Shown: in pieces, positions 24,262 through 31,686 of the stretch
Layout of the letters: every line of letters begins with the position of its first letter
How positions within the stretch are numbered: position 1 is the stretch's first letter
NCBI GenBank assembly: GCA_017415185.1
Contig: JAFQHZ010000023.1
Coordinates: 1-54,072, forward strand
Reading direction: 5' to 3'
DNA: 54,072 nt
Source: Candidatus Gastranaerophilales bacterium
GTDB taxonomy: Bacteria; Cyanobacteriota; Vampirovibrionia; Gastranaerophilales; Gastranaerophilaceae
The notes under the pieces: model-generated
What the model was told of the DNA's origin: nothing
Database searches by the model: none
The model's input: the letters and a program-made list of their open reading frames with translations, nothing else
Position numbers and translations under genes: made by a program

Positions 24262-24283
24262 AAACGGCTCGTTTGAGCCGTTT
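24262..24283 (+). terminator. gatA terminator
   Basis: A 9-bp stem AAACGGCTC/GAGCCGTTT, loop GTTT, followed by a run of T. It separates gatA from the six-gene array. Confidence 0.9.
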
Positions 24284-24344: not shown

Positions 24345-25256
24345 ATGAACATATCAATTTCTTCTTTAAATTTTACTAAAAGACATCATAAAAAAATAAA
24401 AAGAAATAATAAAGTCGAACTTCCTCAAAAACAAGAAGTTAAGCCGATGACTCCTTTAAAAACGGATACTTTTCAAACAACATTAAAACCAAATTGTGAA
24501 TTTGTATTATACCCTTATCATGTTGAACAAACTGTTCCAATGATTAAAAAAACTGCTCAATTTGGGCTTAACGAAGCTTCAAAGGTTTTGCACAATTCAA
24601 AAAAACAACAAGAACTTGCGGGAAAATTATATGAAAAATTTTTAGAAAAATTTTCTTTCAGAAAATCAAAAGCAGCATTTTTAAAAGAAGAAAAAAGAAA
24701 CACAATTTTTAGAATCGGGTTTGATAACGCTATTTATGATGTATCTATTAAAAACGGCGAATGTGTTGCAAGAACACGAAACAATGACCGTTGTGATGAA
24801 AAAGTTCGAGAAGACATTTATAAATTAGACTTGAAAACCGGCGAATTGTTATATTGTGCAATTGGAAAAACAACTTATAAAGATGGCGCTTATTGTGCGG
24901 ATGCAGAATATTTTTATGAAGATAATGAATTAGCTTCTTGTGATTTAAATGTTGCAAATAAAAATTTCAAACTAGTTCAAAAAAGTCTTTTCTTTCAAAA
25001 AGACAAGTTGAAAGAATTTTTGCTTGTTGCAAAAGAAGAGGACGAACAAATACACGTTGCAAAAAGATTTAGCTATTTAAATGATAAGCTTCAAAAATAT
25101 GATGGAGATTTCTGTATTAAAACTGGTGGTGTTATAACTTCAAAATTTAGATATGAATTTGACGAATTGACTAATGAATTAAAATATTTTACCGGAAATT
25201 ATGAACAAAGAGGGGCTGACGAGGTTTATTGGGATGTTATCAGTGTTTTTAGTTAG
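24345..25256 (+). CDS. Array paralog 1 of 6, aromatic-repeat protein, unknown function
   Basis: A 303-residue protein, first of six tandem relatives. AAGGA at about 24331-24335 supports the ATG at 24345 over one 27 bases earlier. The N-terminal ~60 residues are basic and low-complexity; a helical stretch follows (about 75-115), then units of the type [KE]-x-[FY]-x-[FY]-x(3)-[DNG]-x-L-x-x-[YCF]. Four are clear: A-E-Y-F-Y-E-D-N-E-L-A-S-C, K-S-L-F-F-Q-K-D-K-L-K-E-F, K-R-F-S-Y-L-N-D-K-L-Q-K-Y and F-R-Y-E-F-D-E-L-T-N-E-L-K-Y. No signal peptide, membrane helix or catalytic motif. It is the most diverged member at the N-terminus, starting M-N-I-S instead of M-K-I. Function cannot be assigned. Confidence 0.7.
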   Translation: MNISISSLNFTKRHHKKIKRNNKVELPQKQEVKPMTPLKTDTFQTTLKPNCEFVLYPYHVEQTVPMIKKTAQFGLNEASKVLHNSKKQQELAGKLYEKFLEKFSFRKSKAAFLKEEKRNTIFRIGFDNAIYDVSIKNGECVARTRNNDRCDEKVREDIYKLDLKTGELLYCAIGKTTYKDGAYCADAEYFYEDNELASCDLNVANKNFKLVQKSLFFQKDKLKEFLLVAKEEDEQIHVAKRFSYLNDKLQKYDGDFCIKTGGVITSKFRYEFDELTNELKYFTGNYEQRGADEVYWDVISVFS

Positions 25257-25263
25257 GTGAAAA

Positions 25264-26376
25264 ATGAAAATTCAAAGTGTTGATAATAGATTTTTAATTA
25301 AAAATTATAATAATTCAAATTTTTCTTGCCCTGTTTCCTTAATAGCGAAAGATAGTGTTTCTTTTAGTGGTTTATTTGAAAAAGGAATAAAAATTCAAGC
25401 AAAATATTTAAATCAAGATGCAAATTCAACATATAAAGAAGCTAGCGAAACAAGAGAATATTCTTATGTTGTTCTGGCCGATGCTTCCGATTTTCAAGAA
25501 GAAGCTATGCAAATAAAAGAAAATTCAAGCGTCGTTTATTTAAAAGCAAAAGAATTATTAAATTTAGGCAGAAACACTAATTTTGAACCAGTTATCAATC
25601 CTTTAAATAATGAAATAACAAGAGAATATTATGATGGGGATGATGGTCAGCTTATTATCGAAGAATATGATGAAGCTGGAAAAACTTCTCGAAAAATAAT
25701 TTTTGATAGACAAGTTGTGATGGTTATGGAAAGAAATCCTGAAACAAGAAAAATGGATTCATATATTTTTGATGTTGATAATGGCGAGATAATACAATTT
25801 GCAAAAGATATTAAAATTAACCTTGATGGATATGAAGCTTCTAAACAATTTATGTTTCAAGATGGCAAAATAACTTCTTGCGATATTAAGCACAAAGTTG
25901 TTGATGAAAAATATGAAAAATCAAAAACTCATTATTCATATCATGATGGAAATTTAGCAAGTTATAGCATAAATTGGCAATATAATAACGACGGCGTTGA
26001 AAAAAGTGAAGAAAATTACACTTTTGTAAAAGGACAATTGAGAAAAGTTTTTTATGGGCTTGTTGATTCTTTTGAAGAAGAAAGAACAGCACAAGCGGAA
26101 TATATATATGGAATTGATGGCGAATTAACTTCTTGCATTTTGGATGTTGTTATGAAAAAAGATGGCAACAATACAATTGGAACAATGTATAAATATGGCG
26201 AAAATGGCTTGCAAAAAGCATATTTAGACATCGAAGCTTTACCAAAAGAAAGAAAAATGACTGCTAAGAAGCTATTTTTCTATGATGACGATGAGCCTTT
26301 AAGATGTTTGTGCGAATATGAATTTTCTAAAAATGGAAAAGAAAAATTTTCAAAGGCTGTGAATTTGAAAGATTAA
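25264..26376 (+). CDS. Array paralog 2 of 6, aromatic-repeat protein, unknown function
   Basis: A 370-residue protein starting M-K-I-Q-S-V. A V-S-F-S-G motif near residue 32 is shared in form with other members. A helical/acidic middle is followed from about residue 170 by six repeats of 30-40 residues: K-Q-F-M-F-Q-D-G-K-I-T-S-C, T-H-Y-S-Y-H-D-G-N-L-A-S-Y, E-N-Y-T-F-V-K-G-Q-L-R-K-V, A-E-Y-I-Y-G-I-D-G-E-L-T-S-C, T-M-Y-K-Y-G-E-N-G-L-Q-K-A and K-L-F-F-Y-D-D-D-E-P-L-R-C. The pattern suggests paired beta strands with a G/N/D turn, as in MORN-type or YD-type repeats, but the consensus is not exactly either. It begins 7 bases after paralog 1. Confidence 0.7.
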   Translation: MKIQSVDNRFLIKNYNNSNFSCPVSLIAKDSVSFSGLFEKGIKIQAKYLNQDANSTYKEASETREYSYVVLADASDFQEEAMQIKENSSVVYLKAKELLNLGRNTNFEPVINPLNNEITREYYDGDDGQLIIEEYDEAGKTSRKIIFDRQVVMVMERNPETRKMDSYIFDVDNGEIIQFAKDIKINLDGYEASKQFMFQDGKITSCDIKHKVVDEKYEKSKTHYSYHDGNLASYSINWQYNNDGVEKSEENYTFVKGQLRKVFYGLVDSFEEERTAQAEYIYGIDGELTSCILDVVMKKDGNNTIGTMYKYGENGLQKAYLDIEALPKERKMTAKKLFFYDDDEPLRCLCEYEFSKNGKEKFSKAVNLKD

Positions 26377-26378
26377 TT

Positions 26379-27386
26379 ATGAAAATAAATTTGGCAAATA
26401 ATATAAATAATTTTAATAAAATCACCCCTAAGACAACTTCTCCTGTTACTTTTTTGGGTTTAAACAAAACAACTAGCGAAGTTCAAAACAAGGCTAATTT
26501 TAATTTTATAAAAAAAATGAGTTGCACATTAGAAGCAAAAAGAATTCAAAAAAAATCAGATAAAAATATAAAACTATCACAAGAATTACTCAAAAGAGCA
26601 CAAGGCATTAAGAAAAACGCAAAAATAGCTTTAATTGAAGCAAAAGCTATCCAAAAACAAGCTCAAAGAATTAAAAAATTTGGTCTTAGCGCTTTAATGG
26701 AGCAAAGCGAAATTAAAGACGGCAAAGCATTTGTTTATGTTGGAAATCCAAAAGATAAAAAAAGAGATTTATTTATTTTTGATGCAAGAAATAGAGAATT
26801 AATTTCTTTTTCAAAAAATGTTGAAATAGATGGTGAATCGTTCAGCGCCGATAAACATTACTCGTTTAATAATGGTAAATTAGACACATACGACGAATAT
26901 TTTTTAAAAATTGAAGGCGAAGATTCTTTGCTTGAAAAATCTTTAGATAGATATATTTTCCAAGAGGATGAACTTTGCGAATATTCTTCTTTAAGAGAAG
27001 CTTGGCAAGGTATAAGACTAAAAATGGATGAAGTTTTTGCTTTTAAGGATGATAAAGTTCATTATTATTGCAATCAATTAACTTATGATTATGAAGAAGG
27101 GCTTGATTATTCAAAAGCACAAATCGATTTTGGCGAAAATGAAGAAATGGCTGAATATATTGAAGGCGAACTTCAAGATGCTTTTGGAGAAAAAACATAT
27201 AAAAGATATTTCAAATATCAAAATAATGCGCTAAAAAGCGTTTCAATTTATCCTATTCAAACAAAACAAGATGGTTTTGTTAGCGATAGGGTTTTTTCTT
27301 GTGTTGAAGGGAAAATAAAATATTGCGCATTTGACCAAAAAGAAAATGGATTAAATGTAACGTATTCGACAAAAATGGAAATTTAA
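26379..27386 (+). CDS. Array paralog 3 of 6, aromatic-repeat protein, unknown function
   Basis: A 335-residue protein starting M-K-I-N-L-A, with V-T-F-L-G near residue 23-27 in the place of V-S-F-x-G. Residues of about 45-105 form a Lys/Ala/Gln-rich probable coiled coil (K-A-I-Q-K-Q-A-Q-R-I-K-K). Then come repeats such as K-H-Y-S-F-N-N-G-K-L-D-T-Y, D-R-Y-I-F-Q-E-D-E-L-C-E-Y, E-V-F-A-F-K-D-D-K-V-H-Y-Y, K-R-Y-F-K-Y-Q-N-N-A-L-K-S and R-V-F-S-C-V-E-G-K-I-K-Y-C. Only 2 bases separate it from paralog 2, and 1 base from paralog 4, so translation is likely coupled. Confidence 0.7.
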   Translation: MKINLANNINNFNKITPKTTSPVTFLGLNKTTSEVQNKANFNFIKKMSCTLEAKRIQKKSDKNIKLSQELLKRAQGIKKNAKIALIEAKAIQKQAQRIKKFGLSALMEQSEIKDGKAFVYVGNPKDKKRDLFIFDARNRELISFSKNVEIDGESFSADKHYSFNNGKLDTYDEYFLKIEGEDSLLEKSLDRYIFQEDELCEYSSLREAWQGIRLKMDEVFAFKDDKVHYYCNQLTYDYEEGLDYSKAQIDFGENEEMAEYIEGELQDAFGEKTYKRYFKYQNNALKSVSIYPIQTKQDGFVSDRVFSCVEGKIKYCAFDQKENGLNVTYSTKMEI

Positions 27387-27387
27387 A

Positions 27388-28518
27388 ATGAAAATAAATC
27401 CTATTAATAAAAATAATTATAGTGTTATTAACAAAAAAAGCAAAAATGCTTTTTCTAAAAGTAATTCTCAAGCTCCAGTTTTAAAAAATCAAAACCAAGT
27501 TTCATTTTGTGGTTTTATGGATGTGATTGCTGATATTAATTTAAAAATGGAGATAAAAAAGCAATCAAACAATATTAAAAAAGATGCAAATGAAACCCAA
27601 CAAAGAGCTGATGAATTGCTGGATGTGGCACATGAATATATTGATGAATCAAATGATATTTTATATGATGCATACGATATTTTAAGAAAAGCAGACAAAG
27701 TTTTTTCTTCTGCTATGAACCAGCTTTTAGAAGCAAAAGAAAATAAATTAGTTGCAGACATTGATGGAAACAAAACAACAACATTTTCGATTAATCAGGA
27801 TAAAACCGAATATCTAAAAGAAACAAGAAATGGCAAAACAACAAAAGAAGTTATTGTTGGTGGCGATAGGGTTCAAATTGTGTTTTATGGGGCAAACAAT
27901 GTTGCATCTCATTATGTTTTTGATAAATTTACTCAAAGATTAATCGAATATTCTTCTAATGTTAGATATAGTGCAGTTGGATACAAAGCTCAAGAAAGAT
28001 TTCTTTTTAATCAAGATAACTTATGTTCTTATGAAGCAGGATATTCTACAAAATATTCAAAAAGCGAACAGGCCTCAAAAAGATATGTGTTTGAAAATAC
28101 TGAATTAAAACAATATGCTTCTAATTATTTGAATGATTTTGATAATTTAATAAGATATGATGAATTCTTTTCTTTTTATGATTCTCAATTGGTGTTGTAT
28201 GCAAAAGAAGGCAGAACTTTAAATAATATTTGTGAAAGCATACAAGAAAGCTTTTTGTTTTATGATGAAATGCTTTATTTGTATAAAGAAATGCAAAACA
28301 TTGCTTTTCAAGGTAAAGACACAATTAAAAAGCAATATAAATTTGGAAGAAATGGTCTTGAAAAGGCAACTTTCAATGAAACAATAGATATGAATGGGAA
28401 AATTACTGCTTCAGATGTTTATTCTTATTTGAATGATAAATTAGAAAGTTATATTTCAAAATATTCAAAAAATGACGGCAAAAAAGAAACGTATGCAAGA
28501 AAGATAAATTTTAATTAG
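27388..28518 (+). CDS. Array paralog 4 of 6, aromatic-repeat protein, unknown function
   Basis: A 376-residue protein starting M-K-I-N-P-I, with V-S-F-C-G near residue 38. A long helical segment (about 50-115) is followed by six clear units from about residue 205: E-R-F-L-F-N-Q-D-N-L-C-S-Y, K-R-Y-V-F-E-N-T-E-L-K-Q-Y, E-F-F-S-F-Y-D-S-Q-L-V-L-Y, E-S-F-L-F-Y-D-E-M-L-Y-L-Y, K-Q-Y-K-F-G-R-N-G-L-E-K-A and D-V-Y-S-Y-L-N-D-K-L-E-S-Y. This member gives the best view of the consensus. No export signal or catalytic residue pattern is apparent. Confidence 0.7.
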   Translation: MKINPINKNNYSVINKKSKNAFSKSNSQAPVLKNQNQVSFCGFMDVIADINLKMEIKKQSNNIKKDANETQQRADELLDVAHEYIDESNDILYDAYDILRKADKVFSSAMNQLLEAKENKLVADIDGNKTTTFSINQDKTEYLKETRNGKTTKEVIVGGDRVQIVFYGANNVASHYVFDKFTQRLIEYSSNVRYSAVGYKAQERFLFNQDNLCSYEAGYSTKYSKSEQASKRYVFENTELKQYASNYLNDFDNLIRYDEFFSFYDSQLVLYAKEGRTLNNICESIQESFLFYDEMLYLYKEMQNIAFQGKDTIKKQYKFGRNGLEKATFNETIDMNGKITASDVYSYLNDKLESYISKYSKNDGKKETYARKINFN

Positions 28519-28530
28519 GGAAATAAAGTT

Positions 28531-29205
28531 ATGAAAATTCAAGGTGTTGGTTTAATAGATTTCAAAAAACAAAATCATAAGACAAATAATGTTAGATTTA
28601 ATTTTTGTGCTAAAAATAAATTTGATTCATTTGAAAGAACAACAAAAGCTCCAACAATCACTACTGCACTAAAAATGCAAGGTGAAGCAATGGCAAAAGA
28701 AGGAAAAGCTGTTTATAAAAAAGCTTGCAAAGTTCAAAAAGATGTTCAAAAAAATTTGGATCTAGTTTGGCAAAATTTTAACCCAATGCTTGATGAAAAT
28801 GATATTGAAATATACGACGAAAATACTCAACAATTAAAAATTAGCGCACAAGTTTTTGACAAAACAATTTCAATGCGTGAATATTATGATGATAAAATTG
28901 CAAAAGACATCTATATTTCTGGAGATTTTGTTGGAGTTTGTGTATATGAACAAGATGGGAAAATGACTTCTTATGAATTTGACAGGGAAACCAAAAAACC
29001 GATTTCTTGTTTATCTGATTCAAAAACAGACGAGCTTAGTTTAATTGCAGATAAGGCTTATTTCTATGATAAAAATGGCAAATTAAAAACAATTTATTAT
29101 GATTATAATAGAACGTTAGGAAAAATTAGTGCAAGTGAAATTTACGAATTTAAAAATGGAAAATTAATTAATTTCATTGATTGCACTAGTGGAATCGAGG
29201 GCTAA
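28531..29205 (+). CDS. Array paralog 5 of 6, short member, unknown function
   Basis: A 224-residue protein starting M-K-I-Q-G-V, with V-R-F-N-F near residue 21 in place of V-S-F-x-G. Residues of about 45-85 form a helical stretch. Only two clear repeat units remain at the end: K-A-Y-F-Y-D-K-N-G-K-L-K-T and E-I-Y-E-F-K-N-G-K-L-I-N-F. It is about 150 residues shorter than its neighbours. It ends with a normal stop directly before the ATG of paralog 6, so it is a short family member, not an obvious frameshift. GGGAAA about 10 bases before the ATG is a weak ribosome site. Confidence 0.68.
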   Translation: MKIQGVGLIDFKKQNHKTNNVRFNFCAKNKFDSFERTTKAPTITTALKMQGEAMAKEGKAVYKKACKVQKDVQKNLDLVWQNFNPMLDENDIEIYDENTQQLKISAQVFDKTISMREYYDDKIAKDIYISGDFVGVCVYEQDGKMTSYEFDRETKKPISCLSDSKTDELSLIADKAYFYDKNGKLKTIYYDYNRTLGKISASEIYEFKNGKLINFIDCTSGIEG

Positions 29206-30348
29206 ATGAAAATACAAGCAATTAGACCATTTAATTATAAAACCAATTTTAACAATAAAGCTAATGTTCAATATTCAACTCCTGCCTTAAAAGCGGACGT
29301 TGTTGAATTGAGCTTAAAAAACAAAATTTCTTTCACTTCAAATTCTCCAAGAACATTGCTTGATGAAGCAAATTTATATATTGAAGAAGTGAAAAATCCT
29401 TTTGGTGGTGTGCTTGATAAATTTCAAGATATTTTAGAAAGTGGCGGAAATTTAATCTATATTTCAAGAACGGTTGCTTCTGATATTGACGGAGCAAGTT
29501 GGGATGCAAAATATCTTTCAGAAGATTTAATTGAAACTTTTAAAGAAGCTCAACAAGGAAAATTTGTTGCAACTGCTGATGCTTTTAGAAATAGCTTAAT
29601 TGTTTTTCGAAATGATGATTCTTTTGGTGGAAAAATTGGCGAAGAATATAAAAAAGGAAAATTGATTTCAACAATTAGAGAAACACTAGACGGTTATGAA
29701 ATAACTCAATATTGCGAAGATGGCACAAAAAATATTGCTTTAATTTCTCAAGATACAAATGAACCAATTGAATATCAAGTTGGTGTTTTGGAGGATAAAG
29801 ACGGCTTCCACGCTAAAATGATATATTATTATGAGCCTGATAATGGCTATATTAGAAGAAAAGATTATCATCTTAGGGAAGATGGGTCTTCTTCTTGGGC
29901 GAACGAATTTTGTTTTGATAAATCAGGGATTAAAAGCATTTCTTATGATTGCATTTCAACATCGACTGGCATGAAAATTGAAGGTTTTCGATATGATTAT
30001 AAAAACATCGGAGAATATGAAGTTGAAAAATTAATTAGTGCAAGCGAAGGTTACAAAACAAATGCAATTGGAACTTGGAAACAAATTGATAAACAATTTG
30101 ATTTTGAAAACAATTGCTTAAAAAGCTGCGCTTTTGGATTAGAATATTGTCCAACTCAAGGAAAAGTAGAAGCAGATAGGGTATATATTTTTTCTAATAA
30201 AAATTCTTTGAATAATGTTTATGTTAATTATTCAAGCGAAAATGGTGAAAATATTGCTCAAAAATGTTTTGTTTATAATTTTAAAACAAACGAACCTCAA
30301 GATTGTTATTTCAATTACAATATCAAAAGACAATTTCATCAAGGTTAA
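29206..30348 (+). CDS. Array paralog 6 of 6, aromatic-repeat protein, unknown function
   Basis: A 380-residue protein starting M-K-I-Q-A-I, with I-S-F-T-S near residue 45. Its ATG follows the previous stop with no gap; GAGG inside the end of paralog 5 may be its ribosome site. The middle is less Lys-rich than in other members and includes acidic stretches. C-terminal units are more diverged (M-I-Y-Y-Y-E-P-D-N-G-Y-I-R, N-E-F-C-F-D-K-S-G-I-K-S-I, K-Q-F-D-F-E-N-N-C-L-K-S-C, R-V-Y-I-F-S-N-K-N-S-L-N-N). Function unknown. The operon ends at the hairpin at 30364. Confidence 0.7.
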   Translation: MKIQAIRPFNYKTNFNNKANVQYSTPALKADVVELSLKNKISFTSNSPRTLLDEANLYIEEVKNPFGGVLDKFQDILESGGNLIYISRTVASDIDGASWDAKYLSEDLIETFKEAQQGKFVATADAFRNSLIVFRNDDSFGGKIGEEYKKGKLISTIRETLDGYEITQYCEDGTKNIALISQDTNEPIEYQVGVLEDKDGFHAKMIYYYEPDNGYIRRKDYHLREDGSSSWANEFCFDKSGIKSISYDCISTSTGMKIEGFRYDYKNIGEYEVEKLISASEGYKTNAIGTWKQIDKQFDFENNCLKSCAFGLEYCPTQGKVEADRVYIFSNKNSLNNVYVNYSSENGENIAQKCFVYNFKTNEPQDCYFNYNIKRQFHQG

Positions 30349-30363
30349 ACATAAACACGAAGG

Positions 30364-30388
30364 AAAAGCTCCCTTTATGGGAGCTTTT
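30364..30388. terminator. Bidirectional terminator closing the six-gene array
   Basis: Perfect 10-bp stem AAAAGCTCCC/GGGAGCTTTT with loop TTTAT. It lies between the array and the convergent phosphorylase gene, whose stop it touches. Confidence 0.9.
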
Positions 30389-31686
30389 TAATAAATTAAT
30401 TTTGGTTTTTCGAATTCTTCTTCTTGAATTTCAAATGAGCTTTGCGCAATTTTGATTGAATCATTCAATTTTGTTTGAGAAACATCATTGTAATATAACT
30501 CCATTACAACATCGTCTTTTTGGACTTTGTCTCCTATTTTTTTATTAAGGATTATTCCTGCTCCAAAATCAATAGAATCGCTTTTTTTGTCTCTTCCTGC
30601 ACCGAGAAGTTTTGCTGCATGAGCTACATCAAGAGCTATTAATTTTGAAATATAGCCATCTTTATTTGCTTTTATTTCTGTTTTGTTTTTTCCAATTTCA
30701 AACAGGCTATAATCCTCAATTACTTCCGTGTTGCCTTTTTGATGAGCTATGATTTCTTTGAATTTGTTTAAAGCGCTGCCGTTTTTAATAACTAAATCAA
30801 CCATTGCTTTTGCTTCTTCTTTTGTTGTTGCTTTTTTGCAATTTAGCAAGGTTTTAATTGCTAATTCAAGAGTTATTTCATACAAATCTTCTTTATAATT
30901 GCCTTTTAAAAATTCAAGAGCTTCAATAACTTCTAAGCTATTTCCAACGCTAAACCCTAGCGGTTGTTCCATTGAACTTATTACAACATCGATGTTTCGA
31001 TTTAATAATTTTCCAGTTTTAATCATTAAATCGCCAAGTTCACGAGCTTCTTGCGGAGTTTTTAAAAATGCTCCTGAACCATATTTAACATCTAAAACAA
31101 TTGAATTTGCGCCAGAGGCAATTTTTTTGGAAACAACGGAAGCGCATATCAAGCTTTTGTTGTCGACTGTTGCAGTAACGTCACGAAGAGCATAAATTTT
31201 ACCATCGGCAGGTGTTAAATTTGGGCTTTGGGATGATATTGCAACTTTAATATCACTGATTTGTTTGAAAAATTCCTCGTTAGTTAATTCTGTTTTAAAA
31301 TTTGGAATAGCTTCAAGTTTGTCGATTGTTCCGCCAGTAAACCCTAGTCCACGTCCTGAGAGCTTTGCAGTATATACATCAAGTTGAGCTAAAATTGGAA
31401 TCAAAGCAAGTGTTACTTTGTCGCCCACGCCACCTGTTGAGTGTTTGTCTGCAATATTTGATGAAATTTTGCTGAAATCTAAAATATCTCCGCTTTCAAC
31501 AAAAGCTTGGGTAAGATATGCTGTTTCTTCATCGTTTAAGCCTTGAAAACATACTGCCATAAGCCAAGCAGACATTTGATAGTCTTCAATGTTGCCTTTG
31601 GTATAATTTTCAACTAAGAATTTTATTTCTTCTTGGGTGTGGCTTTTTCCTTCTTTTTTCTTTTGAATTAAATCAACTGCTCTCAT
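30388..31686 (-). CDS. pdp: Pyrimidine-nucleoside (thymidine) phosphorylase
   Basis: A 432-residue nucleoside phosphorylase II family enzyme. The glycine-rich phosphate-binding segment D-K-H-S-T-G-G-V-G-D-K-V near residue 80, the signature S-G-R-G-L-G-F-T-G-G-T-I-D-K-L-E near 110 and D-V-K-Y-G-S-G-A-F near 195 are all present. It splits uridine, deoxyuridine or thymidine into base and (deoxy)ribose 1-phosphate. Pdp rather than DeoA is the better label for this length and sequence, though the exact specificity is inferred. It is last in the minus-strand unit symporter-rlmH-pdp, with 9 bases to rlmH. Confidence 0.9.
   Translation of the reverse strand: MRAVDLIQKKKEGKSHTQEEIKFLVENYTKGNIEDYQMSAWLMAVCFQGLNDEETAYLTQAFVESGDILDFSKISSNIADKHSTGGVGDKVTLALIPILAQLDVYTAKLSGRGLGFTGGTIDKLEAIPNFKTELTNEEFFKQISDIKVAISSQSPNLTPADGKIYALRDVTATVDNKSLICASVVSKKIASGANSIVLDVKYGSGAFLKTPQEARELGDLMIKTGKLLNRNIDVVISSMEQPLGFSVGNSLEVIEALEFLKGNYKEDLYEITLELAIKTLLNCKKATTKEEAKAMVDLVIKNGSALNKFKEIIAHQKGNTEVIEDYSLFEIGKNKTEIKANKDGYISKLIALDVAHAAKLLGAGRDKKSDSIDFGAGIILNKKIGDKVQKDDVVMELYYNDVSQTKLNDSIKIAQSSFEIQEEEFEKPKLIY

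What the first reader, a model, noticed from the sequence alone, without database searches (positions are those of the whole stretch)
24345..30348. Six-gene tandem array of unknown repeat proteins
Six adjacent same-strand genes, spaced 0 to 12 bases apart and closed by a strong terminator, encode relatives of 224-380 residues. Each has a short N-terminal segment (M-K-I in five of six), a helical middle and C-terminal units of the form charged-x-[YF]-x-[FY]-x(3)-[GND]-x-L-x-x-[YC]. The units resemble paired beta strands but do not match MORN, YD or Kelch consensus exactly. Expansion of one family into an operon with varying repeat numbers suggests a system under diversifying pressure, for example surface, effector or self-recognition proteins. 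I see no signal peptide or enzyme motif, so the function is open.
Basis: partly seen in the sequence, partly recalled or inferred. Interest (0 to 1): 0.78.

Follow-up and report, generated by a model that had tools for sequence, protein, structure and literature searches.

The report
Tagged beta-sheet repeat protein gene array
A gut bacterium related to cyanobacteria carries six side-by-side copies of a fast-changing, unnamed protein family built from a flexible start tag, one long helix and a flat ladder of beta strands; the same start tag also sits on many unrelated proteins of this lineage, which suggests an undescribed protein-sorting signal.

Summary
Six intact genes (24345-30348) form one terminator-bounded unit, and leave-one-out profiles place each in one family (E 5e-17 to 4e-66). 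No Pfam, NCBIfam or PADLOC model claims them. AlphaFold2 predicts a disordered N-terminus, one long helix and a single-layer antiparallel beta sheet; g4 repeats every 28 residues. The best fold match is engineered OspA (Z 10.9). The genome belongs to Candidatus Gastranaerophilales. The family occurs in 23 of 28 genus genomes, often as 1-8 genes beside deoA, and has dN/dS 0.32-0.35 against 0.03-0.04 for its neighbours. [IV]-S-F-x-[GS]) recurs on many unrelated proteins of the genus (about 6% by eye) and was not seen outside the order. I read it as a sorting signal. The favoured but unproven route is a second type III export set (FlhA2/FliP2) kept even in flagellin-less relatives. Export, partner and function are inferred, not shown.

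The parts
24262..24283 (+). Terminator of the upstream gene gatA; separates it from the array
   Evidence: 9-bp stem and T run, -13.5 kcal/mol
24345..25256 (+). g1, 303 aa; tag MNIS..., helix, beta meander (most divergent member)
   Evidence: leave-one-out profile E 5e-17; AF2 model pLDDT 76, same architecture
25264..26376 (+). g2, 370 aa; tag MKIQSV...DSVSFSG, helix, beta repeats
26379..27386 (+). g3, 335 aa; tag MKINLA...PVTFLG, helix, beta repeats
27388..28518 (+). g4, 376 aa; tag MKINPI...QVSFCG, helix 42-118, six 28-residue repeats, about 20 strands
   Evidence: AF2 model pLDDT 89.5, pTM 0.82; repeats; OspA match
28531..29205 (+). g5, 224 aa; shortest member, fewer repeats
   Evidence: leave-one-out profile E 1e-21
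29206..30348 (+). g6, 380 aa; tag MKIQAI...KISFTS, helix, beta repeats
   Evidence: leave-one-out profile E 2e-30
27388..27513 (+). N-terminal tag segment of g4 (residues 1-42), mostly disordered in the model, holding both motif halves
   Evidence: pLDDT below 50 for nearly all of residues 1-38
30364..30388 (.). Terminator shared by the array and the convergent gene deoA
   Evidence: -17.6 kcal/mol, z -5.5, no shuffle as stable
30388..31686 (-). deoA (pyrimidine-nucleoside phosphorylase); family arrays lie at its 3' side in several relatives
   Evidence: function named from general knowledge

Best explanation
The array is a locally duplicated set of one lineage-specific family. SHOWN: six related genes, one terminator-bounded unit, and family members at several other loci of the genome. 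PREDICTED with good confidence: each protein is a disordered N-terminal tag, one long helix, and a single-layer antiparallel beta sheet made of hairpin units of about 28 residues. INFERRED: the tag, shared with many unrelated proteins of the genus, is a sorting signal. The helix and the two-faced sheet form a binding scaffold, and arrays change copy number and sequence because the sheet meets variable partners outside the cytoplasm. The most likely route is type III export: the genome has a flagellar set (FliPQR-FlhB-FlhA1) and a second set (FliE-FliF-FliH-FlhA2 and FliG-FliI-FliMN_C-FliP2Q2R2) that is also present in flagellin-less relatives.
For: Family and architecture. Fold: engineered OspA 2fkj Z 10.9 over 225 residues, MORN1 Z 7.5, CPAP G-box Z 8.6. 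Family range: 23 of 28 genus genomes, 14 of 146 order genomes. Tag on unrelated proteins: with a motif written from the family, the head M[KNQR][IV][NQSTLA]x[IVLA] is seen on 13 of 289 other proteins of the own genome (shuffle mean 1.2, max 4 of 500), head plus [IVL][ST]F[GSTKC] on 4 (shuffle 0.03, max 1), Fisher p 2.8e-4; no head on 164 proteins from non-Gastranaerophilales loci and none on 82 from another order. Repeated on genus-mate G003: heads 13 of 330 (shuffle 1.4, max 6), joint 2 (0.04, max 1). Carriers match PARP, dual-specificity phosphatase, lipase, Mn-pyrophosphatase, RNase III, alpha-amylase and 5'-nucleotidase models. Tag kept on orthologs: 10 orthologs of one protein keep [VIL][NS]FGR; Mn-pyrophosphatase of G000 and G017. 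Second export set: FlhA2-score hits in 53 of 57 order genomes by my count of the table, the other four being incomplete; the only full-length FlhA of flagellin-less G033 is 78% identical to FlhA2 and 39% to FlhA1. Tagged genes lie close to it (L144, L170, L171).
Against: No experiment shows export of any tagged protein. Several carriers have usually cytosolic domains (RNase III, AAA, CheR, Mn-pyrophosphatase), which fits an internal role as well. Other orders of the class have FlhA but no recognisable tag, so tag and export gate do not simply co-occur. Known type III signals have no strict consensus (general knowledge). In G003 the two motif halves are not significantly associated (Fisher p 0.11). 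With the strict motif, none of 245 proteins from other genera of the order carries both halves; looser forms are seen by eye. I had seen own-genome examples before writing the motif, so only G003 is a clean replicate. Some head matches are ordinary proteins (e.g. MKILVING..., AroQ-like). No translocon, needle or dedicated chaperone was looked for.
Confidence: 0.4

Rival explanations
1. The tag is an intracellular docking peptide: tagged proteins, the sheet proteins included, are recruited to an internal scaffold, membrane patch or compartment, and are never exported.
For: Carriers include enzymes that normally work in the cytosol (Mn-pyrophosphatase, RNase III, AAA, CheR, alpha-amylase family). 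Orders with FlhA but without the tag exist.
Against: No compartment shell or scaffold gene was found or sought; carriers also match lipase, 5'-nucleotidase and PARP models, which suit an outside role.
Confidence: 0.27
2. The tagged proteins leave by another route (an undescribed Sec-independent system, or insertion through the hydrophobic segment that some relatives carry behind the tag), not by type III export.
For: Several relatives have a hydrophobic helix after the tag (L046, L047, L048). The tag is order-specific while FlhA is not.
Against: No other candidate machinery was identified here; the six window proteins have no hydrophobic segment in the sequence.
Confidence: 0.15
3. The array is a defence, toxin-immunity or self-recognition cassette.
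For: Tandem expansion, variable copy number, fast sequence change.
Against: No PADLOC hit, no toxin or nuclease domain, no cognate small partner genes, all members share one architecture.
Confidence: 0.06
4. Tandem duplicates under weak constraint with no special role; the N-terminal likeness follows from shared descent and AT-rich sequence.
For: dN/dS is raised but below 1.
Against: All six frames are intact; dN/dS 0.32-0.35 is far below neutral; the tag recurs on unrelated proteins above composition shuffles.
Confidence: 0.12

Closest known systems
OspA single-layer beta sheet (Borrelia outer surface protein A and engineered extensions, PDB 2fkj)
   Same: Free-standing single-layer antiparallel beta meander; best structural match (Z 10.9, 225 residues)
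   Different: No sequence-family match; no lipoprotein signal; long N-terminal helix and disordered tag instead
MORN and MORN_2 repeat proteins
   Same: Flat hairpin-repeat sheet; MORN1 Z 7.5, viral MORN proteins top the BFVD list
   Different: 28-residue unit; no Pfam MORN match for the six proteins
YD/RHS repeat proteins (teneurin, Rhs, Tse5)
   Same: Tyr-rich strand-turn-strand units; Foldseek E 2e-5 to 3e-4
   Different: No RHS match in Pfam; far fewer units, no sign of a closed shell
Type III secretion substrates with N-terminal signals
   Same: Disordered N-terminus ahead of folded domains; varied enzymes share the leader; export genes in the genome
   Different: A recognisable shared motif; route unproven; a works-like claim only

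Membership tests
MORN / MORN_2 repeats (Pfam) | Match to the family model over its curated cut-off | tested here: not met
   No MORN hit for any of the six up to E 1
MORN / MORN_2 repeats (Pfam) | MORN-type repeat sheet | tested here: inconclusive
   Structural match Z 7.5, in the range of common arrangements
YD/RHS repeats | Match to the family model | tested here: not met
   No RHS_repeat hit up to E 1
YD/RHS repeats | Closed beta shell | tested here: inconclusive
   Weak Foldseek matches only; coordinates not inspected
OspA lipoproteins | Lipoprotein signal with lipobox cysteine | tested here: not met
   N-termini MKI/MNI with polar residues, no hydrophobic segment with lipobox
OspA lipoproteins | Single-layer beta sheet fold | tested here: met
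   Z 10.9, rmsd 6.1, 225 residues to 2fkj, predicted model
Type III secretion substrates | Genome encodes type III export apparatus | tested here: met
   FlhA1, FlhA2, FliPQR sets, FliI, FlhB
Type III secretion substrates | Export depends on the apparatus | not testable with these tools
   Needs an experiment
Type III secretion substrates | Dedicated chaperone or translocon genes | not tested
   Not searched
Known anti-phage defence proteins | Match to PADLOC models | tested here: not met
   No hit up to E 0.1

The most novel reading that the evidence does not exclude
Gut Gastranaerophilales use a sequence-recognisable N-terminal tag (M-K-I-x-x-I ... [IV]-S-F-x-[GS]) to send something like a hundred unrelated proteins, these expandable beta-ladder proteins among them, through a second, non-flagellar type III export apparatus that the family keeps after losing flagella.
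Probability: 0.25. Interest if true: 0.87.

Novelty: new variant of a known kind. Interest (0 to 1): 0.62.

Why it matters
Gastranaerophilales are common gut relatives of cyanobacteria, mostly known from metagenomes, and how they act on their surroundings is unknown. A recognisable leader shared by many unrelated proteins would allow the exported or localised proteome to be listed from sequence alone. It would also give a role to the partial flagellar gene sets that Soo et al. 2014 (PMC4040986) reported as unable to make a flagellum: here they look like a separate paralogous set rather than a remnant.

Tried and rejected
Pfam, NCBIfam and PADLOC gave no family for the six proteins; PHROGs gave one hit below 1e-3 (phrog_1950, unknown function, E 4e-5) on the helix of g3 only. 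The PDB sequence search found only coiled-coil, repeat and designed-protein matches. The search for related loci with g2 found nothing; deoA was used instead to name the lineage and fetch syntenic loci. An exact DNA pattern for M[KN]IN[SPT][IV] across the class was too narrow: about 44 hits against 15 for the reversed control in the window's family (my count of the table). A loose form of the tag motif diluted the signal. L044_6 of the G017 array is not confirmed as a family member by leave-one-out. I considered calling the tag a plain type III signal and left it as a hypothesis, because other orders have FlhA without it.

Full report
CHECK. The six genes are intact open frames on the + strand with gaps of 7, 2, 1, 12 and 0 bases. 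gatA upstream ends in a terminator at 24262-24283. The array ends in a strong hairpin at 30364-30388 (-17.6 kcal/mol, z -5.5) that also serves convergent deoA. BLASTP links the members with E from 8e-19 (g2-g4) to 4e-4 (g1-g2). The cleanest test is leave-one-out: a profile of the rest of the family finds each member at E 5e-17 (g1) to 4e-66 (g2), scaled to one genome, while the reversed and shuffled copies of the window proteins do not score.

ANATOMY. AlphaFold2 on a 26-sequence alignment gives g4 a mean pLDDT of 89.5 and pTM of 0.82: residues 1-40 disordered, one helix 42-118, then about 20 antiparallel strands to residue 374. The most divergent member, g1, gives the same order of elements at lower confidence (pLDDT 76), though its alignment holds the same relatives. 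The sheet matches engineered OspA best (Z 10.9, 225 residues), then other single-layer sheets (CPAP G-box Z 8.6, MORN1 Z 7.5); viral MORN proteins lead the BFVD list. A shared fold does not show a shared function. No sequence family in Pfam, NCBIfam or PADLOC claims the proteins.

WHERE IT OCCURS. Record titles around deoA name the lineage: Candidatus Gastranaerophilales. The 25-row profile finds the family in 23 of 28 genus genomes and in 14 of 146 genomes sampled from the order. The own genome has ten matching places, on contigs 10, 11, 19, 20 and 43. The 3' side of deoA is a recurrent site: 6 genes here, 8 in G017, 4 in L090 (three by profile, one tagged only), 3 in L055, 2 in G003 and G009, single genes in L053 and L085, and none in many relatives. 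Other members lie beside metK, uvrC and YtxH-like genes. Between G009 and G003 the two family genes have dN/dS 0.32 and 0.35 against 0.03 and 0.04 for gatA and deoA. They change fast but under purifying constraint; positive selection is not shown.

THE TAG. The N-terminal segment is not private to the family. In stretches of the own genome, unrelated proteins begin MKIxxI-like and carry [IV]SFx[GS] within about 70 residues. I wrote a strict motif from the family (head M[KNQR][IV][NQSTLA]x[IVLA]; second half [IVL][ST]F[GSTKC]) and tested it on other proteins. Own genome: heads 13 of 289 (composition shuffles 1.2, max 4), both halves 4 (0.03, max 1), association p 2.8e-4. Loci of other phyla: 0 heads of 164. 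G057 of another order: 0 of 82. Genus-mate G003, fetched after the motif was fixed: heads 13 of 330 (1.4, max 6), both 2 (0.04, max 1), association not significant (p 0.11). A few head matches are ordinary enzymes, so the strict test both over- and under-counts; my reading by eye is about 6% of proteins. Nine further genomes from outside the order gave one head among about 305 proteins, an ordinary enzyme. Orthologs keep the motif: ten copies of a 490-residue protein keep [VIL][NS]FGR, and Mn-pyrophosphatase keeps it in G000 and G017. Carriers match PARP, phosphatase, lipase, RNase III, alpha-amylase, 5'-nucleotidase, AAA and CheR models.

HOW IT MAY WORK. A short disordered N-terminal motif on unrelated proteins is most simply a sorting signal (inference). 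Type III export is the favoured route for three reasons. First, all 57 Gastranaerophilales genomes searched have FlhA-family proteins, and the second kind (FlhA2, about 720 bits) is kept in members of the family without flagellin or FlhA1. Second, the only full-length FlhA of such a genome (G033) is 78% identical to FlhA2 and 39% to FlhA1, and FliP behaves alike, so the second set is a distinct paralog and not flagellar decay; it has FliE, FliF, FliH, FliG, a FliI-type ATPase, a FliMN_C protein and FliPQR. Third, tagged genes lie near these clusters, though at a tag frequency of some 6% this could be chance. Against it: other orders have FlhA and no tag, and several carriers look cytosolic. 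I therefore give the sorting-signal reading more weight than the type III route. Published surveys report complete flagellar sets in some members and partial sets in others (PMC3787301, PMC4040986); my searches of the paper library found no description of the tag or of a type III secretion role in this order, but that library is partial.

VERDICT. A real, expandable, fast-evolving, unnamed protein family with a well-predicted architecture; its most interesting property is a leader it shares with a sizeable share of the proteome. Anatomy is secure; sorting, route and function are open.

Noticed in passing
L143 (G000:C17:35001-55000), L144 (G000:C20:29922-49921), L170 (G000:C29:13001-33000): Two type III export sets in one genome; the second (FlhA2, FliP2) is also the only one in flagellin-less members of the family.
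   Followed up: partly
L148:3824-5272, L149:3789-5237, G000:C40:72338-73363: A third protein of about 490 residues matches only the cytosolic part of FlhA (FHIPEP 321-656) and is present in nearly all order genomes searched.
   Followed up: no
L103-L122, L150-L169 and other Gastranaerophilales loci: N-terminal tag on many unrelated proteins, including enzymes with PARP, RNase III, lipase and Mn-pyrophosphatase domains.
   Followed up: partly
L046:7794-10157, L047:7853-8845, L048:8776-10968: Relatives with near-perfect repeats of about 31 residues (e.g. YSYSNGKLDEF...DGTKSWAE) and, in some, a hydrophobic segment after the tag, beside metK or uvrC.
   Followed up: partly
L093:14659-16131 and orthologs in L069-L082: Conserved tagged protein of about 490 residues, two to three genes from a flagellar rod gene, in flagellated relatives.
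   Followed up: no
window 26529-26681 (g3 helix): Weak match of the g3 helix to phage family phrog_1950 of unknown function (E 4e-5); probably helical likeness.
   Followed up: no
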